Of a DNA stretch of 56,410 nt, positions 4,681 through 31,083 are shown piece by piece (position 1 is the first letter of the stretch; each line of letters opens with the position of its first letter). The position numbers and the translations under genes were made by a program. The notes below the pieces were generated by a model. That model was not told where the DNA came from. It did not search any database and saw nothing but the letters and a program-made list of their open reading frames with translations. Source of the stretch: an uncultured Lachnospiraceae bacterium (GTDB taxonomy: Bacteria; Bacillota; Clostridia; Lachnospirales; Lachnospiraceae); contig CANQRR010000020.1 in the NCBI GenBank assembly GCA_947626285.1, positions 1 to 56,410 of the forward strand, in the 5' to 3' direction.

Positions 4681-5454
4681 TCAGCATATGAAGATGTAGT
4701 TATGGAGGTCTTCATTAGAATACCCCCCCCCATTCGTATATAGCTTCAACGCAGGCTTATTTGTTGTCTTACACCATAAGGTAAATCCTTTAAAATCCTT
4801 GTGCATATAAAAATATACAGACATAAGTTTCCCTCCTATTCCTTTTCTCCTATATTTTTCACTAACACATATGTTTCTTATGTACGAAGTTCTTCCCTTA
4901 TCCTCAAAAATAACATAGCCCATTATGTTCCTGACATCTCTAAGACAAATCACCGCTTCATTTTGAATAAATGCTCTTAATTCAGTATCACTAGGGATAT
5001 AATCACCAATGACAGAGAAATTGGTATCCAACATATATCGTATATCTGGAATATCCTCCTCTGTACAATATTCTACAACTTCTTCCAAAAGTTTATCCGG
5101 CTCTGGAAAACCCCCTCGTCGAAATCTCGTATACTGAATGACATCTTTACATTTCATCCTTTTTCTTAGGTCATACTCTTCCAATTCACCTTTGGTCACA
5201 ATCTCAATCGCCACTGTCTCTATTTCTGAAGTATGGAAATCATCTATCCAGCAAAGGTCATTCCCTACAAAATATAATTTTTTATATCCGCATTCCTGCT
5301 GCCAGATAAGCAAACTTCCTTTTCTTATCTCCGCCCAAATCTGCTTATTTAAACATTGTTTTCGGAATTCCTCTATCGTAAAATAACAGTTCGTAAATTT
5401 CTTTTTTTCCCGAATAAAATCAGCGTATACTTCGTTAACCTGCATACTTATCAT
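4681..5454 (-). CDS. GNAT-family acetyltransferase, G-tract switchable (ON)
   Basis: The C-terminal half shows the GNAT acyl-CoA fold: ICVSEKYRRKGIGGKLM has the RxxGxG/A acetyl-CoA loop near residue 212, and an N-x-PALKLY helix follows. Residues 1-115 are an unassigned N-terminal domain. The start is ambiguous: ATG 5454 or ATG 5445 are both downstream of the KASIII stop and close to a GAAGGGG site. Nine G at 4723-4731 encode Gly-Gly-Gly at residues 242-244, just before the last strand. With ten G the frame hits TAA three codons after the tract and loses the conserved C-terminal strand. As sequenced the gene is in frame. It probably acylates an amino sugar or carrier-bound intermediate; the substrate is unknown. 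Confidence 0.78.
   Translation of the reverse strand: MISMQVNEVYADFIREKKKFTNCYFTIEEFRKQCLNKQIWAEIRKGSLLIWQQECGYKKLYFVGNDLCWIDDFHTSEIETVAIEIVTKGELEEYDLRKRMKCKDVIQYTRFRRGGFPEPDKLLEEVVEYCTEEDIPDIRYMLDTNFSVIGDYIPSDTELRAFIQNEAVICLRDVRNIMGYVIFEDKGRTSYIRNICVSEKYRRKGIGGKLMSVYFYMHKDFKGFTLWCKTTNKPALKLYTNGGGYSNEDLHNYIFIC
4723..4731 (-). repeat. G9 homopolymer tract inside GNAT gene
   Basis: Nine C on the plus strand are nine G in the coding sequence. Length nine is in frame. One added G gives a stop three codons later, and one lost G reads through the natural stop into downstream sequence. It is a candidate slipped-strand switch. Confidence 0.85.
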
Positions 5455-5473
5455 TTCCCCTTCGCCCTTAAGA

Positions 5474-6544
5474 TTACAAATTTGTTTCAATTTCTTCGCA
5501 AAATTCCATATTACCGAGTTCCATAATAACAGTCCCCCAAGTTAATCCTGAGCCAAAAGCTGCAAGACAACATAAATATTTATTATTAAGAAACTTGTCT
5601 TTTAAGTTTAGCGCAATGTTCACTGGTATCGATGCACCGCTTGGATTTCCATAATTTTCCACGATATTCATAAAACATTTTTCACTTGGGATTTCAGCCT
5701 TATCTGCCAGCTTCTGCAACATGAATTTATTAGGTTGATGGAACAGAAAGTAATCTATTTCTTCTTTCTTCAAATTACAATCAGAAAACATCGCGTCAAG
5801 CATTGGCGGCACCTCATTCTGAACAAAATTAAAAACTTCCGTGCCATCCATGTGAAGATTATCCAAGCTTCTCTTATTGCCGTCTTCTAATGCTTCAATT
5901 TTTGCCGTTTCAGCTGTACATGGGATTGCAAACCCACCTGCAGGAATCATCAACGCCTTCCTACGGAATCCATCTGCAAATAACCTAAAGCGAATAACCC
6001 CCACATCTTCGTTGTTTTCTATTATACTAATCGTAGATACATCACCGATTAATGGAAAGTCATTTCTGTCTTGCCTAGATACTTTGTGACTCAATACATC
6101 TGCATTAAACAAAAGTACTTTTTTATCTTTCATGTGCTCCAGAAGCATAAAAGATTGAAACAGCCCCAGAAGATATCCACAACACCCTTGCGGAATGTCC
6201 ATACACAGGACCTCCTTTCCAAGGCAACACTCCCCATGTATAATATTACTAATCTGAGGCAGGAAATAATCCGGAGATAATGTTACAACAATAATTGCTC
6301 CAATCTCTCCTTTACTAATTCTCCCATTTTCCAAAAGATACTTCAGTCCTGCAATGCAGAATGCTGATGCCGTGCTATCTTCTCTTGCTAGACGATGCTT
6401 ATTAAATCCCATGATTTTCTTCAACCTCATGGTCTGTTTAGGCGGGAAATCATAATTTTCCACCTCATCATCAAAGTAGCTCTCTGTCTCCGGCAGAATC
6501 GATAGAATCCCACTAATTTTCTTACCCTTGAACACTGCATCCAT
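5474..6544 (-). CDS. KASIII (FabH)-like 3-oxoacyl-ACP synthase
   Basis: The 356-residue protein has the Cys-His-Asn triad of type III ketosynthases: C121 in PQGCCGY, H269 in FHQPN and N300 in NYGNPSG. It should catalyse decarboxylative Claisen condensation of an acyl-CoA or acyl-ACP starter with malonyl-ACP, giving a 3-ketoacyl-ACP. With the FabD-like gene, the carboxyltransferase and two SDRs it forms a minimal elongation set. No dehydratase or enoyl reductase is present, so the product may stay at the 3-hydroxyacyl level. KASIII homologs occur in glycan islands that make 3-hydroxybutyryl-type sugar decorations. AGAGGA lies ahead of the ATG at 6544. Confidence 0.88.
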   Translation of the reverse strand: MDAVFKGKKISGILSILPETESYFDDEVENYDFPPKQTMRLKKIMGFNKHRLAREDSTASAFCIAGLKYLLENGRISKGEIGAIIVVTLSPDYFLPQISNIIHGECCLGKEVLCMDIPQGCCGYLLGLFQSFMLLEHMKDKKVLLFNADVLSHKVSRQDRNDFPLIGDVSTISIIENNEDVGVIRFRLFADGFRRKALMIPAGGFAIPCTAETAKIEALEDGNKRSLDNLHMDGTEVFNFVQNEVPPMLDAMFSDCNLKKEEIDYFLFHQPNKFMLQKLADKAEIPSEKCFMNIVENYGNPSGASIPVNIALNLKDKFLNNKYLCCLAAFGSGLTWGTVIMELGNMEFCEEIETNL

Positions 6545-6585
6545 TTTACATTTCCTCTTTACTTTCCCTATTTATTATGAACATT

Positions 6586-7443
6586 TCAACAATGTGTTAC
6601 CCGTTCTCCATTTAGTCCAAATCCATATTCATGAATTAAATCTTGTTCCGTATATGGACTTTCCACAAAATAGAATGGCTCTTTTCTAATCTTCTCAACA
6701 ATCTGCTCATATGCGTCCTTTTCTCCCAGACATGAGACGTAACTGTCTGCCAGCTGCTCCTTACGCACAAGCTTTTTTTCAATTAATTCATCTTCAAAAT
6801 AATTATAATTGGGTGGTATCTTTATGCCTTTACAATGGGTATGAATATACTGTATCTTTTCTGTCCTGTTCCCATTATAGTCAATCACACCTCCGCGAAA
6901 CGGCATATCAAATCGATATGGAACGTCCAACATTTTCTCTACATAATGAACAAATGTAAAACATTCTCCCTGCTTGGCACCAAAAAATAAGAATTTCACT
7001 CCATCCATCTGATGCAAAATGTCCAGCCCACTGCCCTCTCCAAGGGAATGATTACTTACTTTCTCAAATTTCGCTTTTAACTCTGCTGGAACAGACAGCG
7101 AAAGCAACGGATCTAACGTCCTATACCTTCCCTCCTTCTTTCTAACATACTCAGAAAAAGCCCCCATACTGGTTTTACTGCTACTCACATTGTAGTCCTC
7201 ATGGTTGCAGAAACTATAGGTAAACGTTGGTACTATAACGTTTTTTACATCCAGACCACAGATCACTTCATAAAGTATACTTAGATATTCTCTCCGATTA
7301 AAATTCGATGGAGCTGTACCAAACAAAATATCAGAATGAACAAACAACGTTTCGCAGTCATGCGCTCCTACCTGATATAACACTTTTCTTACATCTTCAG
7401 CATCGTATGCCTTTTTGTTTCTATCTAAAAATAATATTGTCAC
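6586..7443 (-). CDS. AAC(3)-family N-acyltransferase
   Basis: The protein matches the aminoglycoside 3-N-acetyltransferase family fold: FVHSDILFG near the N-terminus, VPTFTYS, a DPLLS segment and the TFVHYVE helix with the conserved histidine. In glycan clusters such proteins acylate amino sugars using CoA or carrier thioesters, so antibiotic resistance is unlikely. I choose a GTG start at 7443 because GGAGG lies 6 nt before it and it falls after the SDR stop at 7460. An ATG at 7485 would overlap the SDR by 26 bp without such a site. It may be the enzyme that moves the acyl chain made by the KASIII/SDR pair onto an amino sugar. Confidence 0.8.
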   Translation of the reverse strand: MTILFLDRNKKAYDAEDVRKVLYQVGAHDCETLFVHSDILFGTAPSNFNRREYLSILYEVICGLDVKNVIVPTFTYSFCNHEDYNVSSSKTSMGAFSEYVRKKEGRYRTLDPLLSLSVPAELKAKFEKVSNHSLGEGSGLDILHQMDGVKFLFFGAKQGECFTFVHYVEKMLDVPYRFDMPFRGGVIDYNGNRTEKIQYIHTHCKGIKIPPNYNYFEDELIEKKLVRKEQLADSYVSCLGEKDAYEQIVEKIRKEPFYFVESPYTEQDLIHEYGFGLNGERVTHC

Positions 7444-7459
7444 AATCGTCCTCCAGATT

Positions 7460-8204
7460 TTAAAGAATTCTTCCTCCATCTGCATAAAGGACTCTACCCG
7501 TCATAGCCGAAGACTGATCACCCAGAAGAAACAATGCACAATTTGCAATCTGTTCCGGCGAAAGCATCCCTAAAAGTTGTCTCCCTAAATTTGGCTCAAT
7601 GCCCTGCTCTAATACCTTATCTGCCATTCTGGTTTTGGTCGCACCCGGACATACACTATTAATTCGAATGTTTTTACTTGCTAACTCTATCGCCAATGTC
7701 TGCACCGCCGCATTAAGTGCAGCCTTAGACATTGCATACAGTGTCTGACACTTTTCTGGCTGTACTGCCGCAATACTCGATATTGCCACAATATTCATAG
7801 CTTCCGCTCGATATTTTCGTTTAACCATCTGTCTGACTATCTCTATGAATGCATATGTATTAACACTCATACATTCATCTATTCTATTTCTGGTGACATT
7901 ATTCAACGGTAATATCGACGGAATCCCAGCACTGTACACTAGACCATCCAGTTTCTTCCCATCCTTACAAGCAAAGGAGCATAACTCCTCTGCCGAAAAG
8001 TCATATTGGGCAAGATCCATTGTAAAAATGACGTGCTTGTCCCCTTGCATCAATTCACGTGTTTCCTGTAAAGCATCTTCATTTCTACCTACAAGTACCA
8101 CTACCCCCCCCCCTATAAGAAATCATAATCGAAATGCACCGACCGATTCCTGAAGAAGCTCCTGTTACTATATATTTTTTCCCGGAAAAATCAAATCCTG
8201 ACAT
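7460..8204 (-). CDS. SDR ketoreductase, G-tract switchable (OFF here)
   Basis: The gene begins at ATG 8204 behind AAGGTGA and starts with the SDR cofactor loop TGASSGIG (residues 14-21). At 8104-8113 there are ten G on the coding strand. With ten, the frame ends at TAG 8085-8087 after 39 residues. With nine, it continues as RGGVVVLVGR into the rest of a normal SDR of 247 residues, with the catalytic YAMSK motif and a C-terminal DGG. Thus the sequenced copy is OFF, and one G loss restores it. The fold resembles FabG-type 3-ketoacyl-ACP reductases and is paralogous to the SDR at 9850-10626. The reading between 7460 and 8101 is open throughout, so decay elsewhere is not seen. Confidence 0.85.
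8104..8113 (-). repeat. G10 homopolymer tract breaking the SDR frame
   Basis: Ten C on the plus strand. The upstream frame (from ATG 8204) and the downstream SDR frame differ by exactly one base, so nine G joins them. The tract sits directly after the N-terminal cofactor-binding segment. Confidence 0.9.
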
Positions 8205-8240
8205 CTTTTATCACCTTCCATTCTATATTTTATAAGCATC

Positions 8241-9776
8241 TTAAAGTGGTATATTTCCGTGCTTTTTCCATAACTTGGGGATTGATTTATCTTTTAGCAT
8301 CTCAATAGCAGCCGCGATTCTCGCCCGTGTCTCTTCTGGAGTAATAATCTCATCCACATATCCGTGTTCAGCTGCAACATATGGATTTAAATATTTATCT
8401 TCGTATTCTCGAATCAATGCATCTTTACTATCTGGATTTTTCTCTATCTCGCGTCTTTTCATAACGGCGACCGCGCCTTCGGCCCCCATCACCGCCAATT
8501 CTGCAATTGGCCAAGCAAATACAACATCAGCATCCATGCATTTGCTATTCATCGCAATGTACGCGCCTCCATATGCCTTACGCATAATAAGACTAATTTT
8601 GGGTACTGTAGCTTCAGAATATGCGTACAGCAATTTTGCTCCATGTCGTATAATTCCGTTATGTTCCTGAGCAATACCAGGCAAGAACGCAGGTGTATCA
8701 ACCAACGTCACCAGCGGAATTCCAAAACTATCACACGTTCTAATAAACCTTGCCATTTTATCTGAAGCATCATAGTCTATAGATCCAGCCATATGCAATG
8801 GTTGATTAGCGACAAATCCTACCGGTCTTCCGTCCATTTTTGCCAGACCTACTACTGCGTTTCTTGCCCATCCGCTGTGTATTTCAAAAAAACTATCTTC
8901 ATCGGCAATTGCTCTGATTACCTTACAGACATCGTATACCTTTTTTGAATTCTGAGGAACAATCTCTTCTATGGATATATTCTGGCAAGCATGTCCAGGC
9001 TCATTTACCAAAAACGAGTCGCGATTATTCTGTGGAAGATATCCTAGCAACTTCCGAACACTTTCGAGACATGCCCGATCATCTGCACGCACTACATGAA
9101 CCACCCCACTTTTAGTCTCATGAACTGCCGCCCCACCCAACTCCTCTTTGGTTACTGTCTCATATGTTACTGTCTTTAAAACTTGTGGCCCCGTGATGAA
9201 CATACAACTCGTTTTCTCAGACATAAATACAAAATCACATATTGCAGGAGAATAACAAGCTCCTCCGGCACATGGACCAAGTATCACTGCAATCTGTGGA
9301 ATGACACCAGATGCTCTAGTATTACGCAAAAAAATACCCGCATATCCGCTCAAGGAATCAATTCCTTCTTCTATACGCGCTCCTCCCCCATCATTAATCA
9401 TGATGATCGGAGCCCCAGCATTTAATGCCATATCTTGTATCCTACATATCTTCTGGCCATGAACTTCTCCAAGAGTACCGCCAGCAACCGTAAAATCCTC
9501 TGAAGATACAAATGCAAGTCTTCCGTTGATTCTCCCATAACCTGTGACTACACCATCACCTGGAATGTTCTTTTCATCAGCTTCCGGAAAGTGAAACCGT
9601 GATTTCATTAAGCTCCCAACCTCGACAAACGTATCCGGATCAAACAAAATTTCAATTCTCTCGCGAGCCGTCAATTTCCCTGCCGCATGTTGTTTCTCAA
9701 TTTTTTCAGATCCACCGCCTGCCGAAGCTACCGTTTTTCTATCCTCCAACTGACTGAATACTTCCTCACCCCACAC
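8241..9776 (-). CDS. Acyl-CoA carboxyltransferase (beta subunit type)
   Basis: This 511-residue protein has the two-domain carboxyltransferase layout of propionyl/acetyl-CoA carboxylase beta chains and methylmalonyl-CoA decarboxylase alpha chains. It shows the NDGGGARIEEG oxyanion loop near residue 130 and GGAYIAMNSK near 405. In this module it most simply supplies malonyl- or methylmalonyl-CoA to the FabD-like transferase, or decarboxylates such a compound. No biotin carboxylase, biotin carrier or sodium-pump subunits occur in the window, so it would need partners encoded elsewhere. The start is GTG at 9776 with GGAGG about 11 nt upstream, a loose spacing; no in-frame ATG exists between it and the preceding gene. 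Confidence 0.85.
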   Translation of the reverse strand: MWGEEVFSQLEDRKTVASAGGGSEKIEKQHAAGKLTARERIEILFDPDTFVEVGSLMKSRFHFPEADEKNIPGDGVVTGYGRINGRLAFVSSEDFTVAGGTLGEVHGQKICRIQDMALNAGAPIIMINDGGGARIEEGIDSLSGYAGIFLRNTRASGVIPQIAVILGPCAGGACYSPAICDFVFMSEKTSCMFITGPQVLKTVTYETVTKEELGGAAVHETKSGVVHVVRADDRACLESVRKLLGYLPQNNRDSFLVNEPGHACQNISIEEIVPQNSKKVYDVCKVIRAIADEDSFFEIHSGWARNAVVGLAKMDGRPVGFVANQPLHMAGSIDYDASDKMARFIRTCDSFGIPLVTLVDTPAFLPGIAQEHNGIIRHGAKLLYAYSEATVPKISLIMRKAYGGAYIAMNSKCMDADVVFAWPIAELAVMGAEGAVAVMKRREIEKNPDSKDALIREYEDKYLNPYVAAEHGYVDEIITPEETRARIAAAIEMLKDKSIPKLWKKHGNIPL

Positions 9777-9849
9777 TGGACTGTTTCCCTCCGCATCATT
9801 CTGTTCATCTAAGTAATTCCTTGATTCTTGATTTCAAAAATGGAATAGT

Positions 9850-10626
9850 TTATCGATAGCCCCCATCTGGTCTGAGAACCTGTGCCGTAAACGCCCTTGA
9901 CGCGTCACTTAATAGAAAAGCACATACTTTTGCAATATCTTCCGGCTGCTGCCATCCAAATATTGACTGCTTTTTCTGCTTTTCCTGAAAATTCTGATTT
10001 TTGTATTCTCTTGCCATATTGGCTGCCATCTCTGTGTTCACAGATCCTGGTGCAATACAATTTACTCTGATTCGTCTCTTAGCGCTCTCCATCGCGATAA
10101 CCGGCACTGCTGCATCCATCGCAGCTTTAGAGGCAACATATGCAAGCTCATATTCTCTTGGTCTCACAGCAAGCACAGACGATATTCCAATTATGCTACT
10201 GCCGTCATTACTATTCTTCTTTTTAAGATAATTCCTAGTCATTTCAATAAAAGAATAAAAATTAACAGACATGACCTCATGAAGTCGCTCTATCGTCAAC
10301 GATTTCAATGGCATGACACTTGCAATTCCAGCACAGTGAACAAAACCATCTAGCTTCCTGTCCCCAGCTGTTATCTGCCCAAACAGTTCGGAGAGATAAT
10401 CTCTCCGAACCGAGTTGCCTAGTAGCGTTCTAAAATCCATAGCAAAAAACTGATGATCTTCGCCTGGCAAGAGCTTTTTCGTTTCTAGTAATTTTTCGGT
10501 ATTTCGTCCCATTAGGACCACCTTCGCTCCAAGTTCAGCACAATAAATGGCTGTTGCTTTTCCAATACCCGAAGATGCTCCTGTGATCAGAATATACTTA
10601 TTACTTAAATCCATTGGGTTTTTCAT
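9850..10626 (-). CDS. SDR-family oxidoreductase (FabG-like)
   Basis: Intact 258-residue short-chain dehydrogenase with TGASSGIG near residue 16, the catalytic YVASK motif near 165 and a C-terminal RPDGGY. It is clearly related to the switchable SDR at 7460-8204. A role as 3-ketoacyl-carrier reductase working on the KASIII product fits the context but is not proved. GGAGGGG precedes the ATG. Having one constant and one switchable reductase suggests two different reduction steps or two alternative products. Confidence 0.85.
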   Translation of the reverse strand: MKNPMDLSNKYILITGASSGIGKATAIYCAELGAKVVLMGRNTEKLLETKKLLPGEDHQFFAMDFRTLLGNSVRRDYLSELFGQITAGDRKLDGFVHCAGIASVMPLKSLTIERLHEVMSVNFYSFIEMTRNYLKKKNSNDGSSIIGISSVLAVRPREYELAYVASKAAMDAAVPVIAMESAKRRIRVNCIAPGSVNTEMAANMAREYKNQNFQEKQKKQSIFGWQQPEDIAKVCAFLLSDASRAFTAQVLRPDGGYR

Positions 10627-10651
10627 AAACCCCTCCTTTACTAGACTACCT

Positions 10652-10873
10652 TTATTCCTCCATTTGCTCCATAAGATCAGCTACTGTCTTGCACCGTTTT
10701 AAATCTCCTGCACTAATCGTTTTACCGAATTCATCGTCTAGCATAGCGATAAAACTAATAGCTGATACAGAGTCCCATTCTTCAATATCAGACAAAACCT
10801 TATCCGCTGTAATGTCCTCTGCCTCCAAATCCATTGTTTCTGCTAATAACTCCAGTTTCTTTTCGTTTGTCAT
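10652..10873 (-). CDS. Acyl carrier protein (second)
   Basis: This 73-residue acidic carrier protein has the phosphopantetheine serine in EWDSVSA near residue 35. Its sequence is unlike the DltC-like carrier at 3526-3756 and closer to the small carriers found in O-antigen and flagellin-glycan acyl pathways. It is probably the carrier for the KASIII/SDR chain. An AAGGAGG site lies 6 nt before the ATG. Confidence 0.85.
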   Translation of the reverse strand: MTNEKKLELLAETMDLEAEDITADKVLSDIEEWDSVSAISFIAMLDDEFGKTISAGDLKRCKTVADLMEQMEE

Positions 10874-10927
10874 AATGACCTCCTTATTGTATATTAATTT
10901 TTATTGCACACTAGTTTATCCATATGG

Positions 10928-12499: not shown

Positions 12500-12500
12500 A

Positions 12501-14168
12501 TTATTGATTTCTCCCCTCCTGAATCATTAACCTATTCTCATAATTGATAAGATAATCATTACTTCCCGTATGGAGTACCTTTGTTGCATTATTCGCATCA
12601 TGCAAATCAAAACTAACACTGTCTAAAACCAGGTTATGTTCATTGTCATAAATAACAACATTCATACCTCGACCATTTCTCGCATAATTCTGTCCGTCAA
12701 TTGTAATCTCAGCTTCTGCTCCAACTTGAAAACCACTGCTGGTCAGCGAATATCCAACCCCATTATTCAAATAATTAGAATATGCTAATTTTCGATTGGA
12801 ATACGCCTCATATACGTTTACTCCGTTTTCCATAACTGCAAGATACGCATCACTATATTTCATGTTATGAAAGTCTACTTCCAATCCTAGCGCATAAAGC
12901 ATCTGACAAATTTCATCAGTAAGACCATTAGCAATATCATCTGTTGCCGCGAAAAACAACGTGATATTGTCCAAGTATGAAAGTTTATCAAAATACTGAA
13001 ACAAATCATCGGCCAGCTGCAGTTCTGAAAGCTGGCATACCTTGTCATATAAGGGCATATCCTCCTCATAAGCAGCACAAACTTCGCCTGATACTGCATA
13101 ATTATCTTGAAGAAATCCTTCAAGATAATCTGTTAATTTCAATGCACCCAGATAATTCAAATGTTGTGTTCCAGCCCCTGCATCTTTTGCCCAATCAATG
13201 CCTAAGTCTACATCATATTGCAAATCCAGAAAGTCAATCCCGGACAACGCTACCTTTTCTTTCAAAATATTAGACTTCATTAATGTCCATGCCCCGTCAA
13301 ATGTTATAGGATGTCCAAAAGCCGGAGCTCTAATCAACAATAATTCTGCTCCATTCTCCTCGCATATTTGTTTAATTTCCATTAGCATATCCCAATACTC
13401 CTCTGTAATTTGAGGAGCGTAATATATGCTAGTATTTATTTCATTCTGCGGCATACCATCATCCATTACAACCGTCCATCCCGCATTACTATAAATCTCC
13501 TGCTCAATTTCATTCATCCAGTCAATTGTCAGACCAGATGGTGTTATCCCGGTACATGGCATATGTCCTTTTCTATACAAATTCAACTGTTTTCTCGCAC
13601 TAAAATCACTTTGAGATAATGCAGACCATCTGGTATGATACTGATAGAATGGCAATAATGCACTAACAAGCGCATCTGTCTTTTTTTGTTCACCATATTC
13701 TTTCGCCCATTGTGAAGCATAATAGGAAGCAAACTTCAATTTATTTTTGCTTAATGGCATAGTATCTAAAATGTAATGATACCCGCCGTCAAAAAAAGAA
13801 TCCGAAAATAATCCACTTGCCTCCATAACTACAACCTTGGGAGACTGCGTTTTAAACATTTCTTTACAGAGATAATAGCTAACCGGAAAAGGTTGCCCTG
13901 AGCTAGACATATTATACGTTACAATACCTGTGTCTTTGTATATTTTCATAGGATCAATATCCCATTCGGAAATGCTTGATCCCAAAAAAACTGCCTGCAT
14001 AGAAACTTTATTCGTTAATTGATAAAATTCATCCATCATATCTTGGGGAGCTTCAATCATCGTAGGATAATACCAGTTTCGTTTTAATATGTTTTGAGCA
14101 TATATAAATAGACATATGACTAGCAAAATAAAAAGTATTGTTTTTATTAAATTTCTTTTTATTGTCAT
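12501..14168 (-). CDS. Membrane-anchored SGNH-like protein with C-terminal ILEI-like domain
   Basis: The 555-residue protein starts at ATG 14168; an apparent upstream extension is only the tail of the neighbouring broken copy. Residues 7-26 form a single N-terminal membrane segment, so the rest should face outward. Residues 60-350 resemble the SGNH/DltD-AlgX type partners of MBOAT enzymes, with FLGSSIS near 61-67 and a late HLNYLG near 336. Residues about 398-525 form a second domain with TDD.A...TDE followed by NGRGMNVVIY and VSFDL, the signature of the ILEI/FAM3 (GG) domain but in swapped order. It probably completes transfer of the acyl group to the glycan and may bind sugar through the extra domain. 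Confidence 0.75.
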   Translation of the reverse strand: MTIKRNLIKTILFILLVICLFIYAQNILKRNWYYPTMIEAPQDMMDEFYQLTNKVSMQAVFLGSSISEWDIDPMKIYKDTGIVTYNMSSSGQPFPVSYYLCKEMFKTQSPKVVVMEASGLFSDSFFDGGYHYILDTMPLSKNKLKFASYYASQWAKEYGEQKKTDALVSALLPFYQYHTRWSALSQSDFSARKQLNLYRKGHMPCTGITPSGLTIDWMNEIEQEIYSNAGWTVVMDDGMPQNEINTSIYYAPQITEEYWDMLMEIKQICEENGAELLLIRAPAFGHPITFDGAWTLMKSNILKEKVALSGIDFLDLQYDVDLGIDWAKDAGAGTQHLNYLGALKLTDYLEGFLQDNYAVSGEVCAAYEEDMPLYDKVCQLSELQLADDLFQYFDKLSYLDNITLFFAATDDIANGLTDEICQMLYALGLEVDFHNMKYSDAYLAVMENGVNVYEAYSNRKLAYSNYLNNGVGYSLTSSGFQVGAEAEITIDGQNYARNGRGMNVVIYDNEHNLVLDSVSFDLHDANNATKVLHTGSNDYLINYENRLMIQEGRNQ

Positions 14169-14179
14169 GTATATCACCC

Positions 14180-15201
14180 TCATACCCTTAGATAATTCAA
14201 ATGCTGTGTTCCTGCCCCCGCATCTTTGGACCAATCCAGCCCAAGATCAACATCATATTGTAAATCAACAAAAACAATCCCATCGGCGTCAGCACGCTCT
14301 CTCAAGAGATCCGACTTAATCTGGGTCCAAGAGCCTCCATAAGTGATCGGATGTCCATAAGCCGGAGTCTTGAGTAATAATAATTCTGCATCATTTTGCT
14401 TGCAAATACGAGATAAATCAAGCAACATTGTCCAATGTTCTTCATTAATTTCAGGATTATACACTGGTTCCAAAATCTTTTTCTTCTGGAATGACCCGTT
14501 CTTTAGTATAGTTTTATATCCTTTACTGTTATAAATCTGTCGCGCGATATAATTCATTCTACTAATCGTCATACCTGTTGTAGTTATCGAACTGCATGGT
14601 AAATATCCTTTTCGATACAGATTTACCTCTTCTCTATCACAAAAATTCGTTTCTGTCAAAGATGACCAAAGGTCATGATATTGATATAACGGTAATAACG
14701 CTCCAATAAAGGCGCCCTGTTTTTTTCTTTCGCATTTTCTATAGCATATTGCTCTGCATAATAAGAAGCAAAATTCAGCTTATTTTTACTCAATGGCATA
14801 TGATCTAAAATATAATGATAACCCCCATTAAAAAAGTCATCCCCAAACAATCCGCTTGGAGAAATAACAACTACATCTGGATACTGAGTTTTAAACATTT
14901 CCTTACACAAATAATAGCTGACTGCAAACGGCTGTCCAGAACTGCACATATTGTAAGTAACAATTCCGGTGCTCTTATAAATATCCATCGGGTCAATATC
15001 CCACTCATAGCCACTGGGGCCAAAAAATACTGTTTGCATATCAACCTTATCTGTAAGCTGATAGAATTCAGTCATCATATCACTAGGTGCCTCGACCATT
15101 GACGGATAATACCATTTTCTCTTTAGTACATTTTGTACACATAAAAACATGCAAAGAAATATTACGATAAAGGATATCGTTTTTACTAATGTCTTTCCCA
15201 T
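14180..15201 (-). pseudogene. Truncated, frameshifted tandem copy of the SGNH gene
   Basis: This is a direct duplicate of the upstream two thirds of the gene at 12501-14168, very similar at protein and DNA level. The N-terminal frame (15201 to 14656) has the membrane anchor, the FFGPSG nucleophile region and YNMCSSGQP. It goes out of frame at an A7 run (plus-strand T7 at 14720-14726); eight A would restore ALLPLYQYH and the following LNLYRKG-type region. Homology stops abruptly after HLNYL at 14190, and the whole ILEI-like domain is missing. The A7 tract may be a simple mutation or a second kind of length switch. The serine of GxS is retained. Confidence 0.75.
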
Positions 15202-15216: not shown

Positions 15217-16269
15217 TTATATCGATATATTCTTTTTTCGAATAAGCACCTCATAAGCTTCATTAAAGAAAATTGAAGCCACTAATGATAATAATAAATA
15301 AATTAGAACCATAGTTCTATAATTCCTCCCAGGTGCTAGTTTACATAAAGCAAAACTCACAATCATATGTAAAAGATAGAACCAATAACTTATTTTACCT
15401 AGATAACATATAATGGTCGCTACCCCCCCCCTAGATATTAGAGGTCTTATCTCTGTTATTATAAGAAGCAATGCTATCGCTGGTATTACTACGAAATCAG
15501 CCTCATCAAAACCTCTTGAAAACATTATTCCACATATTGTTAAACCACAAAGCAGTTTAATTGTTATTCCATAAAATCGTATATGTTCTTTTTCAATATT
15601 CAATCTTCTATTAATCTCTTTCGAAACAAATGGCAACACCGCTCCAATACTCATTTCAGAAAACCCACGTAAAAGTCCTCCATTAAAGACGAAATCATAT
15701 GAACCTTGCTGTGTTAATGTACCATATTTTCGAGCCAAATAAACAAGTATCAAGATACTTATAGCTGGGGCTATGCCAATAAATAAATCAAGATCTCTAT
15801 CAATCAAAAAAAATATTATCCATGTCAAAAATATGAGCGTTGAAATATACCAAACACTTCTCATGTTAAATTCTGCTGGCATCCCCAAAAAATGAAGACA
15901 AACCAACTGCCAGCGAATTCTCCACAAATATGATGCCAGTTCTCTGATTCCAAATCCTTCAAAACTCCATTGAACTAATAACATAACAATCGTAGCAACT
16001 AAATATGGCGGATATAATCGCTTTATTCTATGCGAAAAATACCTGAACGTATTAGAAAATGCACTACCTTGTTTTTGGCTTTTGACCCAGTGCTTCATCA
16101 TAAGATAACCAGATAGCATAAAAAAGAAATCAACTCCAAGATATCCTCCTGGTATAATACCACGTGTTCCTGTATAATCCTCACTAAAATGTAAAACAGC
16201 TACCGATATTGTAAAAAAAATACGATAACACTCTATTTCTAAATTGTCCCTTTTAGATATAGTCTTCAC
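15217..16269 (-). CDS. OafA/YrhL-type acyltransferase 3, G-tract switchable (ON)
   Basis: A polytopic membrane acyltransferase of the acyltransferase-3 family, about 350 residues. The conserved N-terminal helix carries the family histidine in AVLHF, followed by GGYLGVDFFFMLSGY. Such enzymes O-acetylate or O-acylate surface polysaccharides. The start is uncertain; I prefer GTG 16269 (reading V-K-T-I-S) near a GGGGTG site, but GTG 16293 is possible. Nine G at 15423-15431 fall near residue 280. With ten the frame meets TAA about eight codons later and the last 65 or so residues, including the final membrane helices, are lost. As sequenced the frame is intact. Confidence 0.82.
   Translation of the reverse strand: MKTISKRDNLEIECYRIFFTISVAVLHFSEDYTGTRGIIPGGYLGVDFFFMLSGYLMMKHWVKSQKQGSAFSNTFRYFSHRIKRLYPPYLVATIVMLLVQWSFEGFGIRELASYLWRIRWQLVCLHFLGMPAEFNMRSVWYISTLIFLTWIIFFLIDRDLDLFIGIAPAISILILVYLARKYGTLTQQGSYDFVFNGGLLRGFSEMSIGAVLPFVSKEINRRLNIEKEHIRFYGITIKLLCGLTICGIMFSRGFDEADFVVIPAIALLLIITEIRPLISRGGVATIICYLGKISYWFYLLHMIVSFALCKLAPGRNYRTMVLIYLLLSLVASIFFNEAYEVLIRKKNISI
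15423..15431 (-). repeat. G9 homopolymer tract inside OafA-like gene
   Basis: Nine C on the plus strand, read AGG GGG GGG GTA in the gene, in frame. Ten G would lead to TAA a few codons later. Same length and same ON state as the GNAT tract. Confidence 0.85.
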
Positions 16270-16311
16270 AATCACCCCATCAACCTTTCGCACTCAGAAC
16301 TATATTATTTT

Positions 16312-23673: not shown

Positions 23674-24929
23674 ATGAAAGTTGTTTACCAAACCTGTTAT
23701 GGCGTCTCCGCAAATCTTTTCTCGTCGCCACCATCATCAAAACCACTTCCGGAGTCTAGCCTTCTTATCACAAGAAGCGTTTCTCCACCTTTAACAATTC
23801 TATTCTTGAGTTCAAAAATTGGCTGTTGGACAATTCCTGCAGTGATATCTGTATGGAATCTACCGGTAAGTATTGGGGCCTGTGTTCAACCTTTTGGAGA
23901 ACGACATCAACGTCACCATCGCCAACCCCAAATGGGTCAAGGCTGTCAAGGAGAACAATGACGATACCAAGAATTTCAAATGGATCGGGGATCTGTTCAG
24001 GCTGGGGCTTGTGCCAGGAAGCTATATTCCATGCAGGCCGATTCGTATCCTCAGGGAGTTTACGCGGTACCGGTATAAACTGACTTCCTGCAGAAGCAGT
24101 GAGAAGAATCGATTTCAGAATACGCTTACCGTCTGTAATGTCGCATTGGATTCGGTGATTTCTGATATCTTTGGGAAATCAGCCACTTCTATCATCGATT
24201 ACCTCCTTGAACAGTCCTCGGGTTCCATCAACCACGAAGAAATAGCCTCCAGACTGCTCCGTTCGCTCAAGAAGAAGTCTAAGAGTGTCATCGAGTCCAT
24301 CGAGGGTTATCAGATGACTGATCCCCAAAAATACCGTATGCGTCTCATCCACGCACATATGGATTATATCACATCTACGATAAATGATATAGACTCTATG
24401 ATCGATTCTCTAGTTGAACCTTATGAAAATGCTGTCCAGTTACTCTATATCATCCCCGGTATTGACCGCAGCAGTGCGGTCACTGTCATTTCCAAGATCG
24501 GTACTGACATGACACAGTTTTCCAGCTCAAAACGTTTATGCTGCTGAGCCGGTTTGACTCCCGGTAATAATGAGTCAGCCGGTAAGAAGAAATCTGTTCG
24601 GATCACACGTGCTGGTGTCTACCTCAAACCCGCATTAGTGCAAGTCGCCCATGCAACCGTGAAATCCAACAAGTCTCCTTACTACAAAGCCAAATATGAC
24701 CGTATCAAGAAACACCGAGGGCATAAGCGTGCTATCATAGCTAGCCCGTATGCTCCTGACCTGCCTTTACCATATGTTCCTGAAAAAAGAGGCATTCCAG
24801 CCATCTGATATCCACTATGAGGAGCTCCCGGAACAGCTTCTCCAAAAGCGGAAAGAACAATATATCCGGCAGGCAATAAAACTATTGGAAAAGGAAGGGA
24901 TGACAGTAGTGCCTCCTGCTGTTGCCTGA
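23674..24929 (+). pseudogene. IS110-family transposase, degenerate
   Basis: Starting at ATG 23674, fragments in several frames rebuild a transposase of about 415 residues. The RuvC-like part has CMESTGKYWG near 23850 and ANPKWVKAVK near 23925, and the C-terminal Transposase_20 part has IPGIDRSSAVTVISKIGTD near 24450. Damage seen: a frame change soon after the start that removes the first catalytic aspartate region (GVDVHK-like), another near 23870, a nonsense TGA at 24545-24547 before AGLTPGN and a further frame change near 24745. The last frame ends at 24929. It cannot be active in this copy. Confidence 0.85.
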
Positions 24930-24963
24930 TAACCTTTTTTGTAATATAAGTTTTCTTACACTC

Positions 24964-24990
24964 AAAAGCGGCAGTTTCTGGCGCTTTTTT
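24964..24990 (+). terminator. Intrinsic terminator after the IS110 transposase
   Basis: AAAGCG and CGCTTT form the outer stem around CAG-TTT-CTG, followed by TTTTTT on the plus strand. It ends the transposase transcript. On the minus strand a weaker TTTTG follows the same hairpin, so it could also slow the operon transcript. Confidence 0.7.
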
Positions 24991-25064
24991 CGTTATGCTT
25001 CTGTTTCTACTTTACGTCTTCACACTAGCCTCCTTATAGTTTAATAATTGGTTTCTAACATTAA

Positions 25065-27728
25065 TTATCTCATGCATGGAATATCGTTCACATGCGTATC
25101 AAATGTAACACAGTCCATTATTGCGCCTGTATTACAATCCGTTATAACAAAATTAAACCCCCTTCCTTTTATCGCGTAATCTATACCATCAATCACAATT
25201 TCTGAGCTATTCCCTGCGTTTAATGTTGCACTTTCTAACTTTAATTCTCTATCATTTTCTAAATTATATTTTGAAACTATTCTCTCGTCACCACCCATTT
25301 TATCTACACACACATTTCCCTGATGTATTAATGCTAAAAAGCTGTGATATTGATGTTCTAATAACACATCAGCATTAGAAATTCCAAGTCTTTCAATTTC
25401 GTCTATAATGTTTTGGTTCAACGCATATCCTTGTATGTCTTTCACTGAAATAAGAATATCAAGTGAGTTTTTATATTTGTTTAAGCATTTCAAATATTCT
25501 TCAATATCACTTATTCCATGAAGATTATCTGTTATATCAGCCGTTTCTTTAGATTCTCCTGTGCTTAAACATAACCAATCATCATACGCTTCAGCCCATG
25601 TTTGTATATTACTAAATCTCCATTGCTGATTAAAGGATCCTGTATAAGTTCTCAGATATAACTCTCCCGTCTTAATATCATAAGTAATTGCCTCTTCACC
25701 TTGATTTATGGAAAAAAGCTGATTATTTATTGCATTAATACTCCATCGGGAATATTCTGATTTCCCATCTCCACTTATGATTATATTCCTTTTTCCATTG
25801 TTTACCTCCGCTGTGGACATTAAAAACGCTTTTGAATCTGCAATACATAAATACGATTCCCCTGCATAAGTAATCACTTCTATAGGATACGCATTACCTG
25901 TTGTAAGTCCAACAATACTAGATCCATCCTTATCAGTTGTAACCGATATCATACCTTTTGGTGAGCTAACCAGATAACTATCGTTTGGCAAAATATTTTC
26001 AATCAGTGTCTGATCATTTAGATATTCATAATAATCTGTTGTGTCTTGTGTGATAGTATCTCTCCTCTCATTGGAATATAATCCTTCCCAAAACATTAAA
26101 AAAATAGCTGCTACACAAAGCATAATCTTAGTAGAAACTCCAAGATTCTTTTTTGTATGTCTCTTTTCTCCTATAGCGATAATGTCATGCCTTTTCCCTT
26201 GCAGCAATAATTTATATCCAATACACGCGTAAGGAATCAATGCCACAAAATAATATATTGTGTATCTAGCCTTCGCTTCCCAAATCAAGTGAAAAAGGAA
26301 ACCACCTACAATAATCAGTGGAAAGATGAAAGTATTAATAAATAATTCTCTATTATTAAAAGATAATATTAATGCTACTATAGCCCCAAAAAGAATTAAA
26401 ATAGTCATAATATGATACAATATCATTGCCCTATACTGTCCCGGATAACTTAACAAACAGTATACCCATTTCGGTACTTCAATATTAGAACCCTCCCTAA
26501 CTGTTCCAAAACATTGAAATGATGGATTTGCCCAAATTGACGCAATTTTTTTTGAAAAAAAATCAAATGTATATTCTGGCTGATTCTTAAATCTTTTTAA
26601 TATTTTTTTTAGCTCCTTTTTCGCAATCCTTTCCTGGATTTTCGTATCACGCCCGCTTTCTTCATAACTTGTCTCTACATACTCGTTCCACCAGCCTGGA
26701 GCTAACGGACTCTCTTTTAGCCCCATTGTTATATATGCCCAAGAAGAACATGGATTCTCCATATTATAACCAGAAATTACTTCTATAGCCTTTTCCGTGA
26801 TAAGAGACTGTGCCGTACAACTCAAGAGAAATAAACATATTATAAAAGCATTCTTTTTTCGACGTTTATTTATTAGTTTCACTATTGCAAATATAATCAT
26901 AGCAATAAAGTGAATTGTCATATTGTTTTTAATCGCTACTGCTATACTTATAGCAATTGAACTAAGAAACGCATTTTTCCAATTATAGTCCTTAAAATAG
27001 AGCATTTCATGTTTAACTGCTGTATATGCCAAAGCCATTCCCACAATATTTCCATAAATTATAATTGAATATCCAATTAAAGGAAAAAACAAAACCCCTA
27101 TTATCAAAACACTTATTTGGCATAGTCTATTTTCAGTATATAGTCCTACTATTTCAGCAAACTGCTTATATATCATACAAATTGCAACCGCATTAATTAT
27201 CTCAAACACTATATAATTCTTACTTCCAAATATACAGGAAATCACATATGCATAAATAAAATAGAACCACTGAAATGGATATTTATTCATATATTCCCCA
27301 GGTGCAAACATACTTGCATCGCCTCTTATAAATCTATAGATGTACGTTTGAATTAATCCTTCATCTATCCCAGGAATATATTGAGTGCTAACAGCCCAGA
27401 TTAAAGCTAGCCCCAAAATCAGCCAAAGCAAACCATATTTAATCATTTTATAGCATTTATCATTCCGAAAAAAACAATTCAGTTTACACAAAATGTGCGT
27501 TTTATTTGCAATAAACAATACTAAGAGAAAAGAGCCCAATACCAGGAAATTCTTTATAATACTATCTTCTACAAAATACGTAACTTCCCATTTCACCAGA
27601 TAACTGGTCATTTGCATATTGTAAAAGAAAATCAATGAAATCACGCCAATACAAAAAAAGCCTATTCCATAAACACAGAGATTTTCTACTTTAGATCTTA
27701 AATTAAGCATTGATCTGTTTTCCTGCAT
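25065..27728 (-). CDS. GT-C type membrane glycosyltransferase with lectin-like tail
   Basis: The 887-residue protein has about ten membrane helices in residues 20-550. A DE motif in PGIDEGLIQT (near 122) lies in the first outer loop, as in GT39/ArnT-like transferases that use polyprenyl-phosphate sugars. Residues about 620-706 look like a ricin-type beta-trefoil fragment, with a W-x-I repeat near 662 and FNQQWRF at 699-705. Residues 755-880 repeat the ILEI-like domain seen in the SGNH protein (KGRGFNFVIT near 854, VTFDTH near 874). The tail should be outside the cell and may grip the acceptor glycan. It may work with the GtrA and GT2 pair. Confidence 0.75.
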   Translation of the reverse strand: MQENRSMLNLRSKVENLCVYGIGFFCIGVISLIFFYNMQMTSYLVKWEVTYFVEDSIIKNFLVLGSFLLVLFIANKTHILCKLNCFFRNDKCYKMIKYGLLWLILGLALIWAVSTQYIPGIDEGLIQTYIYRFIRGDASMFAPGEYMNKYPFQWFYFIYAYVISCIFGSKNYIVFEIINAVAICMIYKQFAEIVGLYTENRLCQISVLIIGVLFFPLIGYSIIIYGNIVGMALAYTAVKHEMLYFKDYNWKNAFLSSIAISIAVAIKNNMTIHFIAMIIFAIVKLINKRRKKNAFIICLFLLSCTAQSLITEKAIEVISGYNMENPCSSWAYITMGLKESPLAPGWWNEYVETSYEESGRDTKIQERIAKKELKKILKRFKNQPEYTFDFFSKKIASIWANPSFQCFGTVREGSNIEVPKWVYCLLSYPGQYRAMILYHIMTILILFGAIVALILSFNNRELFINTFIFPLIIVGGFLFHLIWEAKARYTIYYFVALIPYACIGYKLLLQGKRHDIIAIGEKRHTKKNLGVSTKIMLCVAAIFLMFWEGLYSNERRDTITQDTTDYYEYLNDQTLIENILPNDSYLVSSPKGMISVTTDKDGSSIVGLTTGNAYPIEVITYAGESYLCIADSKAFLMSTAEVNNGKRNIIISGDGKSEYSRWSINAINNQLFSINQGEEAITYDIKTGELYLRTYTGSFNQQWRFSNIQTWAEAYDDWLCLSTGESKETADITDNLHGISDIEEYLKCLNKYKNSLDILISVKDIQGYALNQNIIDEIERLGISNADVLLEHQYHSFLALIHQGNVCVDKMGGDERIVSKYNLENDRELKLESATLNAGNSSEIVIDGIDYAIKGRGFNFVITDCNTGAIMDCVTFDTHVNDIPCMR

Positions 27729-27842
27729 TTCTTTTAACCTTTCGTTTATCTTTCGATATTTTCAACCTTAACTATCAGACAACATGGTATTAGAAACCAC
27801 TATTTTATCCATGACGTTCTTTCCTATCAGTGAACCGCTTTG

Positions 27843-29624
27843 CTACAGATCCAGATATTTCTTCCAGAAACTAATGTTCTGCACTTCTTTGCATCTGTTC
27901 CTGTATTCCTCAGCAATATGATCATAGTTTCGTGCCATTTCCAAACTCAGTTTCAGCATTTCTTTCAGGCAACGTATCGCTTCTTTTCGGCTGCGTTCAG
28001 TGATAAATCCCTTTTGTGTTGTCACATCATAATTCAGTATCCGTTTTGCGCGATAAGCATTATATGGACAGATTTTGGACATAGGGGCAATATTGTCACT
28101 TTTTGCCCACAGTAAATAACCATTTCCGCAGGCTAACCGCAACAGCCTTCTAAGTCCAGAATCTCTTTCTTTGAGGCTTTTTTCATATTCCGGATAGTGG
28201 AATGGCAACGGCAGCTTTTCTATCGGCTGTGCCTTATAACCACCGGCCATAACATCCTGATTAATCTTTTCACCATCCGAAGTTTTCAACCAATCGATTC
28301 CCTTTAGGAAATCTCGCACCCCTCGAACGAGCAAATCCACATTTTTATATCGATAATACAGGATTTCTCTTACAATCCAGCCTCGAACCTCTTTTATGGC
28401 CTCTTTCTTCCCATACTCTGGAAAGTGCAGTGCGTTGTCTATGAACTGATTCCTGAGTATATAGTAAAATAAAGACGAAGAATATTTGTTCTCAAATGTT
28501 TCATGCCAGACACAAATCCCATTCATCAAGATCAGTGTTTTCATATTACGCAACCCATACTCCACATCATCCCCGCGGATAAAGACCGGCATCGGCAAAT
28601 TGTCCTCTCTTGCCACAGAAATAGGGAAACAGCAGTACCACCAAGCGTTATACTCAGTATACTCCTCCACCTCATTATACAGGCAGGCATCAACCTGACT
28701 CATGTCCATATTTTGCTTGAGAGATTCAAGCTTTCCCGCGTTCCAAGATGCCCCTGACTCTGTCTGAATATTTCCAACATCACTGCGCATCATTGCCCCG
28801 CCGATAAACGCGTCGACATATTCCTCTTTTAACATCGTCAGGATGCGATAAGTCCGAAACAATACTTCCGGATCCAGAATAATATCGTCATCCATCACAA
28901 GAATGTGGGTGATCCCTGCCCTCTGTTTGTTCATCTCTATAATCTCAATCATGCCGCGGGTGAAGCCTGCAGCCCCGCCAGCGTTTTTGTTCGTGAAGAT
29001 ATGGATTTTTTCATTAGTGAGCTTATCGGCATCGAGTGTATGTCCATTGTCAGCAACAAACACCTCAAGATTCCCATACAACTCCGAATTCGGATTTTCA
29101 AGAATTGCCTTTCTTATAGCCTCCAAGTTTCTTTCGACAAATTTTTCCCGCCGATATGTGCAAATTGCAGCACCTATCCTCACATCCCGCACATTAGCCT
29201 GGGAGGCTTCCACTGAATAACTCCCTCCTTTGAATATTCCGTCTACACTTAATGCTTCCAGATAAAAGAATGCCATGCCGTTGCATTCGGGAAAGTCAAG
29301 TCGAACAGACTGCAGCCCCACATTATGTATACAAGACTCTAACACAATGCTCTCATTGATCTTATCGTGAACTTTCTTCTTATAGCCCAGGCGGATTGCA
29401 AAATCACCTTTCAACGTCAGGGTCAGGGAGATTTTTCCCATAGTTGTATATTTCTTCCATTTATCAACCGATACACTGTTAAAATAAGTATCCCCGCTGA
29501 CGCAGCCACCTCTGGTGAAACGGATTTCCTCTCCCACACGAACCGCTTTCTTATTTGTTCTAAAATACAATTCTTCTTTCATGCAAATATCTGTGCGCGG
29601 CCACAGAATATTCTGTAGTATCAT
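27843..29624 (-). CDS. GlfT2-like galactofuranosyltransferase
   Basis: A 593-residue GT2 enzyme of the GlfT2-like group: an N-terminal beta-sandwich of about 145 residues, a GT-A domain starting at RDVRIGAAICTYRRE, NAGGAAGFTRGM near 214, the metal-site MDDDI at 244-248 and a catalytic-region VWHE near 380, then a helical C-terminus. The family polymerises or branches galactofuranose from UDP-Galf. The UDP-galactopyranose mutase gene lies 1.5 kb upstream, and a paralog is at 33807-35645, so two Galf or related linkages are expected. Confidence 0.85.
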   Translation of the reverse strand: MILQNILWPRTDICMKEELYFRTNKKAVRVGEEIRFTRGGCVSGDTYFNSVSVDKWKKYTTMGKISLTLTLKGDFAIRLGYKKKVHDKINESIVLESCIHNVGLQSVRLDFPECNGMAFFYLEALSVDGIFKGGSYSVEASQANVRDVRIGAAICTYRREKFVERNLEAIRKAILENPNSELYGNLEVFVADNGHTLDADKLTNEKIHIFTNKNAGGAAGFTRGMIEIIEMNKQRAGITHILVMDDDIILDPEVLFRTYRILTMLKEEYVDAFIGGAMMRSDVGNIQTESGASWNAGKLESLKQNMDMSQVDACLYNEVEEYTEYNAWWYCCFPISVAREDNLPMPVFIRGDDVEYGLRNMKTLILMNGICVWHETFENKYSSSLFYYILRNQFIDNALHFPEYGKKEAIKEVRGWIVREILYYRYKNVDLLVRGVRDFLKGIDWLKTSDGEKINQDVMAGGYKAQPIEKLPLPFHYPEYEKSLKERDSGLRRLLRLACGNGYLLWAKSDNIAPMSKICPYNAYRAKRILNYDVTTQKGFITERSRKEAIRCLKEMLKLSLEMARNYDHIAEEYRNRCKEVQNISFWKKYLDL

Positions 29625-29684
29625 ATCGTCCTCTCCCTGTCTCTTTGCGTATACTTGATAATCCTATTTCGAAAGACCGGCACT

Positions 29685-31083
29685 TTATAATTCATTCCGG
29701 ATCATTTCATCAATCGCTTTGTTGGCACGCCGATATATATTCCCGCAGTCCACACTATTCCGCCCGGCTTCGCTGATCAATGCCGTCCATTCGTCCTCAT
29801 CCACTTCATTAAGCTTCGAAAACAGTATCTCTTTATTCCTAAAACCGTAAAAGTCATACAGGTAATCCACTTTATTGTTATAATGTGGATGAACATCATT
29901 CTTCAGGTTTATTACATTGCATCCCAGATAATTTGCCAGTAGCGTTCCATGATATCTCATGCTTATCACAGTCTCGGCATCTCCAACCAGCTGCGCAAAT
30001 TCCCGAATATTTCGTGGCATTTTCTCGACTATGAGCCTGTCACTCTCCAGATCATTCTTCAGTCTCCTATAAAATTCCGTATCATTTTTCTCTGGTTCAA
30101 AAAAAGGAATGCATACCAATCTCTCCTCATCGTTTTCTGTCCATTTCAAAATCTTTTGGGTGAATGCTTTCAGTTCTTCATAGTACCTGCCATAATATAT
30201 GTATATCAGGCATATTTTCTTAGATTGGGCAGGCTTTTTATACGAATCAGGATCCGCTCCGGCAAAAGCGATATCGTCTACAATCTTTATCTTTTCAACA
30301 CCGACACCGCAATCGACTAACGGTTTTAAGCTGTTTTTATCTCGAAGAGATATATATTCTATTCGATTGATAACCTTTTTCAATCTTTCTATATATTCCG
30401 GAACGACCAGCTCCTGCGTACAGCTAAGCCCGTACCATATTACCTTTTTCCCAAATTCCTCCATCCTTAGAGAAAGATTTGGAATCGTGTAAAGAAGCGG
30501 CAGTTCCCTATTATAGCAATCGTAATTGATGTCATCTATCAGACAGCCGCCGCCAATTATCATCGCGTCAAAATATCGGGCCAGAAAATTGATATCCGGC
30601 ACACTTTTCGGGTATCCTATGATCTTCACGTCTGGATATTGAAAAATATCAATCCTGGGATTTCTTTCAACCATCACGGTTATCTCATAAGCCTGTTTAA
30701 CCTTCTCCTGGCTTAGCAGCTTGCTAAGCAACACCTGCAGCATAATTTCGTCGCCATAATTTGGCGCGCCATAATATCCCATTACCAGAAGTTGTTTCTT
30801 CCCCCCCCCCACACACAATATTATAGAGGAGATACCTATAACCAGAGTTTTCTTCAGTCAATATACTCATGAGATCCCTGTAACCGGAATTTACCTCGGT
30901 CATTTTATTCATAATGTCCCTGCACTGGCTTTGTAAAACTGCTATCTCACTCCTGAGTGCCAAATTCTCAGAAACTAGCTTTTTCTCTAAATCTTCTAAG
31001 GTCACCGCTATTTCGTCTATTCTCCTAGCGCCTTTCAAAATCTCTCTGCCATAACCTGCCAGTCTCCCTATCTTCCCTGCCAT
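29685..31083 (-). CDS. Pyruvyl transferase with coiled-coil head, G-tract switchable (OFF)
   Basis: From ATG 31083 the frame encodes a roughly 90-residue coiled coil with an internal repeat (TEVNSGYRDLM then TEENSGYRYLL). It then reaches ten G at 30801-30810. With ten it leaves frame and ends at 30724 after 119 residues. With nine it joins directly to GKKQLLVMGYYGAPNYGDE, the start of a polysaccharide pyruvyl transferase that runs to 29685, for 465 residues in all. The transferase part has the family's GGGCLIDD and MRYHG motifs (near 97 and 270 of that part). Internal initiation at TTG 30818 is possible but has no ribosome site. So ketal-pyruvate capping of the glycan is probably switched off here. 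Confidence 0.82.
30801..30810 (-). repeat. G10 homopolymer tract splitting the pyruvyl transferase
   Basis: Ten C on the plus strand. The coiled-coil frame upstream and the transferase frame downstream differ by one base, so nine G fuses them. Same nine-equals-ON rule as the other genic tracts. Confidence 0.9.

What the first reader, a model, noticed from the sequence alone, without database searches (positions are those of the whole stretch)
4723..30810. Four genic poly-G switches with a shared nine-equals-ON rule
Four genes of one operon carry a coding-strand run of nine or ten G: GNAT (9), SDR (10), OafA-like (9) and pyruvyl transferase (10). In each, nine G gives the full-length family protein and ten G gives early termination. 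At the local base composition a nine-base C or G run should be rarer than one per window. All runs have G on the coding strand and all sit in decoration enzymes, never in transferases that build the backbone. This looks like a combinatorial contingency system: four independent switches give up to 16 acyl/pyruvyl glycan forms. Such SSR-based glycan variation is well known in Campylobacter and Neisseria but I know of little for gut Firmicutes.
Basis: partly seen in the sequence, partly recalled or inferred. Interest (0 to 1): 0.95.

Follow-up and report, generated by a model that had tools for sequence, protein, structure and literature searches.

The report
Poly-G switches in a capsule operon
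An unnamed bacterium, probably a gut Clostridia relative, carries runs of nine or ten G inside several surface-sugar genes; small slips in run length should switch those genes on or off, as known from Campylobacter but little described in this group, and a mobile element seems to land in the same runs.

Summary
The four tracts are real and well above chance. C runs in the window are 1-5 bases long, then five of 9-10, none of 6-8. The genome (G000, 3.73 Mb) has 79 G runs of six, 13 of seven, 17 of eight (derived), 24 of nine, 7 of ten, 1 of twelve, a peak like that published for Campylobacter. Relatives support slippage: of 13 close SDR homologues (window included) 6 are full length with Gly-Gly at the tract, 6 start exactly after it, 1 has a foreign start; of 7 close GNAT homologues 4 keep the native tail, 3 end in the tail of another frame. 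For OafA and pyruvyl transferase only frame logic is shown. Tracts also lie in promoter spacers and just before starts, here and in some genus relatives. Nine-equals-ON holds for 10 of 11 coding tracts I could decide; 'never backbone genes' fails outside the window. A repeat with a subterminal hairpin, perhaps an insertion-sequence end, abuts G runs at 6 of 7 junctions; its body was not found. Verdict: a phase-variable poly-G repertoire, with possible mobile-element docking. No reads were available.

The parts
4723..4731 (-). G9 tract near the 3' end of the GNAT gene (ON, judged by homologue tails)
4681..5490 (-). GNAT acetyltransferase (PF00583), ends LHNYIFIC at nine G
8104..8113 (-). G10 tract in the SDR gene, about 30 codons after the ATG at 8204; out of frame here (OFF)
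   Evidence: homologues
7460..8204 (-). SDR (PF13561/PF00106), split between two frames at the tract
15423..15431 (-). G9 tract at codon 287 of the OafA-like gene, in frame (ON)
15217..16293 (-). Acyltransferase-3 (OafA-like, PF01757)
30801..30810 (-). G10 tract between a 91-codon N-terminal extension and the pyruvyl transferase domain; out of frame (OFF)
29685..31083 (-). Pyruvyl transferase (PF04230) and, in another frame, its N-terminal extension; six of nine other listed homologues (449-468 aa) carry such an extension fused
56334..56342 (-). Fifth tract, G9, 10 nt before the ATG of the CapD-like gene (5' UTR)
54458..56323 (-). CapD/EpsC-like dehydratase (PF02719), most upstream cluster gene on this contig
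56343..56410 (-). 68-nt repeat end with subterminal hairpin, abutting the fifth tract; also at the ends of contigs C27 and C64, each against a G run
292..10873 (-). Acyl-synthesis-like module (acyl transferase, AMP-ligase, KS III, ACP, carboxyltransferase, two SDRs, GNAT, formyl transferase, PF02522 N-acyltransferase) holding two of the switches
52049..52858 (-). NusG-like protein, possible antiterminator of the cluster (inference)

Best explanation
These are slipped-strand poly-G contingency loci. The DNA polymerase gains or loses a G in runs of 9-10, which moves the downstream frame. In SDR, OafA and pyruvyl transferase this swaps full-length enzyme for a truncated product; in GNAT it swaps the last dozen residues for another tail. 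The fifth tract, just before CapD, would tune initiation of that gene. The assembled window has GNAT and OafA ON, SDR and pyruvyl transferase OFF. The same device recurs across this genome, also in promoter spacers and 5' UTRs, so cells should differ in combinations of surface glycan and surface protein. Shown: tract excess, frame logic, both frame states among relatives for two genes. Inferred: slippage in living populations, enzyme activity, glycan change.
For: Run-length excess: 0.42 runs of 9 or more expected by extrapolating the fall from six to seven (1.1 to 1.7 with more generous ratios of 0.25-0.3), 32 seen. SDR: among 13 close homologues (65% identity or more, window included) 6 full length with GG at the tract, 6 of exactly 213 aa starting right after it, 1 of 228 aa with another start; of 106 of the 107 more distant ones in the list (120 listed of 156 found) 4 are that short (Fisher p 8e-6). 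GNAT: 4 of 7 native tail, 3 of 7 shifted tail; the 39% identical P0138, without the Gly-Gly, ends in the native way. Six pyruvyl transferase homologues run on from an N-terminal extension. TTGACA-N-G run-TATAAT promoters at 8 sites in 5 of 47 genus genomes, 0 in the reversed control; three here, spacers 19, 15, 16. CapD-type genes: of 32 matches 30 loci were examined; 7, the window's own included, have a G run of 8 or more near the start (six) or in the promoter (one); about 0.008 expected in 40 nt before 30 starts. By my tally 21 of 32 tracts lie in or before glycan or surface-protein genes (the Fcl-like gene by my own reading).
Against: No reads and no second strain of this species were seen; the variation is between relatives and, for SDR and GNAT, read from predicted proteins, not their DNA. 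Pyruvyl transferase has no close homologue (best 41-42%), and three of its nine other listed homologues lack the extension (one 360 aa, one with a different N-terminus, one 206 aa). OafA homologues were not searched. Of 97 other genomes searched with an SDR homologue at E<=1e-50, 46 of them of the genus, only G041 has a match, 45% identical and with no tract check made. The closest CapD relatives G040, G041 and G042 (82-89%) have no tract. GNAT may work in both states; homologue P0139 shows a third ending. Some tracts sit in or by symporters, a signalling protein, a helicase-like gene or AbiE-like genes, so not all need be surface switches.
Confidence: 0.9

Rival explanations
1. The tracts are assembly or sequencing artefacts (poly-G calls) or chance runs.
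For: Some genus drafts do show very long poly-G (G008 C172 at a contig start, G014 C105), and drafts with many overlapping matches but few separate runs (G019, G020, G045) lack the flank bias seen here.
Against: Most tracts lie inside contigs with coherent frames on both sides; length peaks at 9; homologues from other sequence sources share the tract position; the next base is T in 24 of 32 long runs versus 10 of 79 six-base runs.
Confidence: 0.03
2. The tracts are programmed translational or transcriptional slippage sites: mixed products from one genotype, not heritable switching.
For: G runs can cause polymerase or ribosome slippage (recalled); OFF genes are kept open on both sides of the tract.
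Against: Homologues differ in frame at the tract; tracts also occur in promoter spacers and 5' UTRs, where frame does not matter. Both processes could coexist.
Confidence: 0.07
3. The tracts are mainly landing sites or scars of a mobile element and have no switching role.
For: A repeat end abuts G runs at 6 of 7 junctions in three genomes.
Against: Only three copies of the repeat end were found in this genome, two at 9-G runs and one at an 8-G run, so 30 of the 32 long runs show none (the C59 run lies at a contig end and cannot be judged). Frames and promoter geometry fit switching.
Confidence: 0.05

Closest known systems
Campylobacter poly-G phasome (PhasomeIt, PMC6321876; passages seen)
   Same: Poly-G/C lengths peak at 9 (53%) and 10 (26%) there (tracts of 7 or more); here 24 and 7 of the 32 runs of 9 or more. 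Most tracts in ORFs with G, not C, on the coding strand.
   Different: Another lineage, with acyl-synthesis and pyruvyl decoration genes; no read-level variation shown here; possible mobile-element docking.
Bifidobacterium breve pilus G-tract switch (PMC9187656; abstract and passages seen)
   Same: Gut commensal, intragenic G tract joins two frames by replication slippage, measured by maximum depth sequencing.
   Different: Two pilus clusters in an actinobacterium (equivalents in other bifidobacteria); here 32 tracts, most by glycan or surface genes.
Mycoplasma agalactiae gsmA and Gardnerella sialidase repeats (one-line mentions seen in PMC9187656, and PMC11868660)
   Same: Repeat-mediated phase variation outside the classic Gram-negative pathogens; gsmA by a G tract, for glucan secretion.
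   Different: Single genes as mentioned there, not a repertoire.
Neisseria promoter-spacer switches (porA/nadA type; recalled, not read)
   Same: Homopolymer between -35 and -10 changes spacer length.
   Different: Here spacers of 15-20 with the G run directly before TATAAT, upstream of Big_2 proteins and, in G044, a CapD-like gene.
Invertible promoters of gut Bacteroidales glycan loci (PMC11868660, passages seen)
   Same: Phase-variable glycan synthesis in gut commensals.
   Different: DNA inversion by recombinase, not repeat slippage.

Membership tests
SSR (poly-G) phase-variable contingency loci | Tract excess over sequence expectation | tested here: met
   32 runs of 9 or more, 0.42 expected by extrapolation
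SSR (poly-G) phase-variable contingency loci | Length change toggles a gene product | tested here: met
   Frame counts in silico for the four genes, clean for three, tail only for GNAT
SSR (poly-G) phase-variable contingency loci | Both states in related sequences with conserved flanks (SDR, GNAT) | tested here: met
   Protein level only
SSR (poly-G) phase-variable contingency loci | Both states in related sequences (OafA, pyruvyl transferase) | tested here: inconclusive
   No close pyruvyl transferase homologue; OafA not searched
SSR (poly-G) phase-variable contingency loci | Length mixture within a clonal population | not testable with these tools
   No reads
SSR (poly-G) phase-variable contingency loci | Phenotype switching | not testable with these tools
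   No strain
Promoter-spacer SSR switch | Repeat between -35 and -10 upstream of a surface gene | tested here: met
   3 sites here, two of them before Big_2 genes, and 5 more in 4 other genus genomes
Promoter-spacer SSR switch | Spacer length varies and changes transcription | not testable with these tools
   No reads or expression data; two near-identical promoters here have 9 and 10 G
Insertion sequence with poly-G target | Repeated end joined to different sequences at a shared target | tested here: met
   6 of 7 junctions at G runs of 7-9 (one of them two bases away), one G-rich only
Insertion sequence with poly-G target | Transposase, second end, target duplication | tested here: inconclusive
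   None found in family, order, viral, plasmid or phage searches for this end, but every contig found ends inside the repeat

The most novel reading that the evidence does not exclude
Some species of this genus run a genome-wide poly-G phase repertoire at three levels (promoter spacer, initiation region, coding frame), and a mobile element with a hairpin near its end homes into these runs, adding a slower, polar layer of switching to the fast slippage layer.
Probability: 0.4. Interest if true: 0.85.

Novelty: new member of a known kind. Interest (0 to 1): 0.72.

Why it matters
If true, these probable gut Clostridia diversify their surface sugars by the same repeat slippage as Campylobacter and Neisseria, which bears on phage resistance, immune recognition and why genomes of such species seem to hold broken glycan genes. 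It makes testable whether the tract length of nine with ON-at-nine arises by convergence, and whether mobile elements exploit contingency repeats.

Tried and rejected
The mobile element's body was not found and Rfam gave no match to the repeat end or to the window at gathering level. A universal nine rule was dropped after the C12 symporter (in frame at 8 or 11) and the G018 hexapeptide transferase (in frame at 8 by my hand reading). Numbers corrected on recount: one search holds a preliminary binomial for 12 of 13 (now 10 of 11, p 1.3e-4) and a typed '20/31' for G037 (one search gives 19 of 31). In the 10 of 11, the C109 FkbM gene rests on taking the longer upstream frame and the Fcl-like and hexapeptide genes on my reading of motifs.

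Full report
What is there. The window is positions 1-56410 of contig C20 of a 3.73-Mb, 147-contig genome. The cluster genes that I annotated, from 56323 down to 292, lie on the minus strand: a CapD-like dehydratase, a NusG-like protein, two Bac_transf priming transferases, glycosyltransferases, Wzy, a flippase, an ABC exporter, galactofuranose enzymes, two pyruvyl transferases, and an acyl-synthesis-like module with ACP, KS III, carboxyltransferase, SDRs and GNAT. The four reported G tracts are exact and a fifth precedes CapD by ten bases.

Not chance. In the window C runs number 7527, 2473, 566, 160 and 57 for lengths 1-5, none for 6-8, then 3 and 2 for 9 and 10, while A and T runs fall off steadily to 8. 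Genome-wide G-run counts, both strands, are 79 for six, 13 for seven, 17 for eight (derived), then 24, 7 and 1 for nine, ten and twelve. A similar 9/10 peak is reported for Campylobacter (PMC6321876, passages). In the genus 41 of 47 genomes hold a run of nine, but abundance is patchy: among eight relatives that I chose for many matches or promoter tracts, G037 has 31 separate runs, G018 19, G035 13, G015 12, G019 8, G040 6, G045 6 and G020 2. The next base is T in 19 of 31, 15 of 19, 8 of 13, 6 of 12, 2 of 8, 2 of 6, 2 of 6 and 0 of 2 of these, against 24 of 32 here.

Switch logic. Nine G puts SDR, OafA and pyruvyl transferase in frame; ten closes SDR and pyruvyl transferase in the assembled genome. 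Over the genome 10 of 11 coding tracts that I could decide are in frame at nine: GNAT, SDR, OafA, pyruvyl transferase, a DUF7601 surface protein, a hexapeptide transferase, two FkbM methyltransferase genes, an Fcl-like gene and one SSF symporter. The other SSF symporter is in frame at 8 or 11. The remaining long runs were not decidable or not coding.

Variation. SDR homologues come in two kinds whose difference lies exactly at the tract. GNAT homologues carry either the LHNYIFIC-type tail or a tail of the MKTS...EQ-AA type, which corresponds to the window's own DNA read one frame over (frame read by eye from the DNA). P0139, 39% identical, ends just after the glycines, a third outcome. This is the strongest evidence of past slippage. 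Six pyruvyl transferase homologues at 34-42% identity show an extension fused to the domain, which suggests the ON architecture but shows no switching; three others lack it.

Other tract positions. Three tracts here lie in TTGACA/TATAAT spacers, two before Big_2 proteins and one whose downstream gene lies beyond the contig end; five more sites are in G017, G035, G040 (two) and G044. Of the genes behind those, G017 has a weak peptidoglycan-binding match, G035 a weak Y_Y_Y match, G040 none, G044 CapD. Tracts just upstream of starts precede WbqC-like, Wzy_C and 7TM-HD-GGDEF genes here and CapD-type genes in G046, G018, G009, G008 and G037. In G046 an upstream ATG makes a coding tract equally possible. 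One tract (C96) has C on the coding strand, before a helicase-like gene. Relatives' coding tracts include two acyltransferase-3 genes, KS III, three SDRs, hexapeptide transferases, but also YicC in G015 (18 proteins of 30 fetched loci searched there).

Mobile element. The last 68 bases of the window hold a hairpin about 38 bases from the tract (fold z -3.5 for the 77 bases with the tract) and recur at the ends of contigs C27 and C64. That these ends are assembly breaks in a collapsed repeat is inference. Junctions: G9 before CapD, G9 in an acyltransferase-3 gene, G8 in an SDR gene; in G039 a G8 and a G-rich stretch that is no run; in G124, another genus, a G8 two bases away in a glycosyltransferase-like gene and a G7 before another (the two gene names are my reading of the DNA). 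That is 6 of 7 at G runs, against about 2.5e-5 per random junction. No body, transposase or second end was found, so the kind of element is open.

Novelty. Ten full-text searches listed no paper that by title or abstract reports a poly-G phase repertoire in gut Clostridia; I saw listings, and passages of four papers only (PMC9187656, PMC13317340, PMC11868660, PMC6321876). The library is open access only. Precedent exists in B. breve. I therefore call it a new member of a known kind, with the mobile-element link as the new part.

Noticed in passing
window 23873-24808 (+): Decayed IS110-type transposase in two frames inside the cluster, on the opposite strand; it may break the operon.
   Followed up: partly
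32 long G runs of the own genome (window and L036-L057): The base after long G runs is T in 24 of 32 and TA in 18, never TT or TC, against T in 10 of 79 six-G runs. Loss of A flanks by A-to-G change and C-to-T bias could explain part; the purine after T is unexplained.
   Followed up: partly
L049 (C53:23717), L050 (C59 end), L040 (C11:62314): Tracts lie between tandem paralogous pieces (two Bac_transf domains in one open frame; TupA followed by a partial TupA), hinting at recombination at tracts.
   Followed up: no
L038 (C4:109554) and L039 (C5:78): Two promoters share 105 nt upstream at 97% identity but have 9 and 10 G and different downstream sequence.
   Followed up: partly
window 12501-15201: Direct repeats of 300 and 92 nt about 1040 nt apart, a likely tandem duplication of a gene with a weak ILEI match.
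   Followed up: no
G018 C167:45525-45534: A further tract lies about 90 nt upstream of the aligned start of that genome's second CapD-like match; its locus was not fetched.
   Followed up: no
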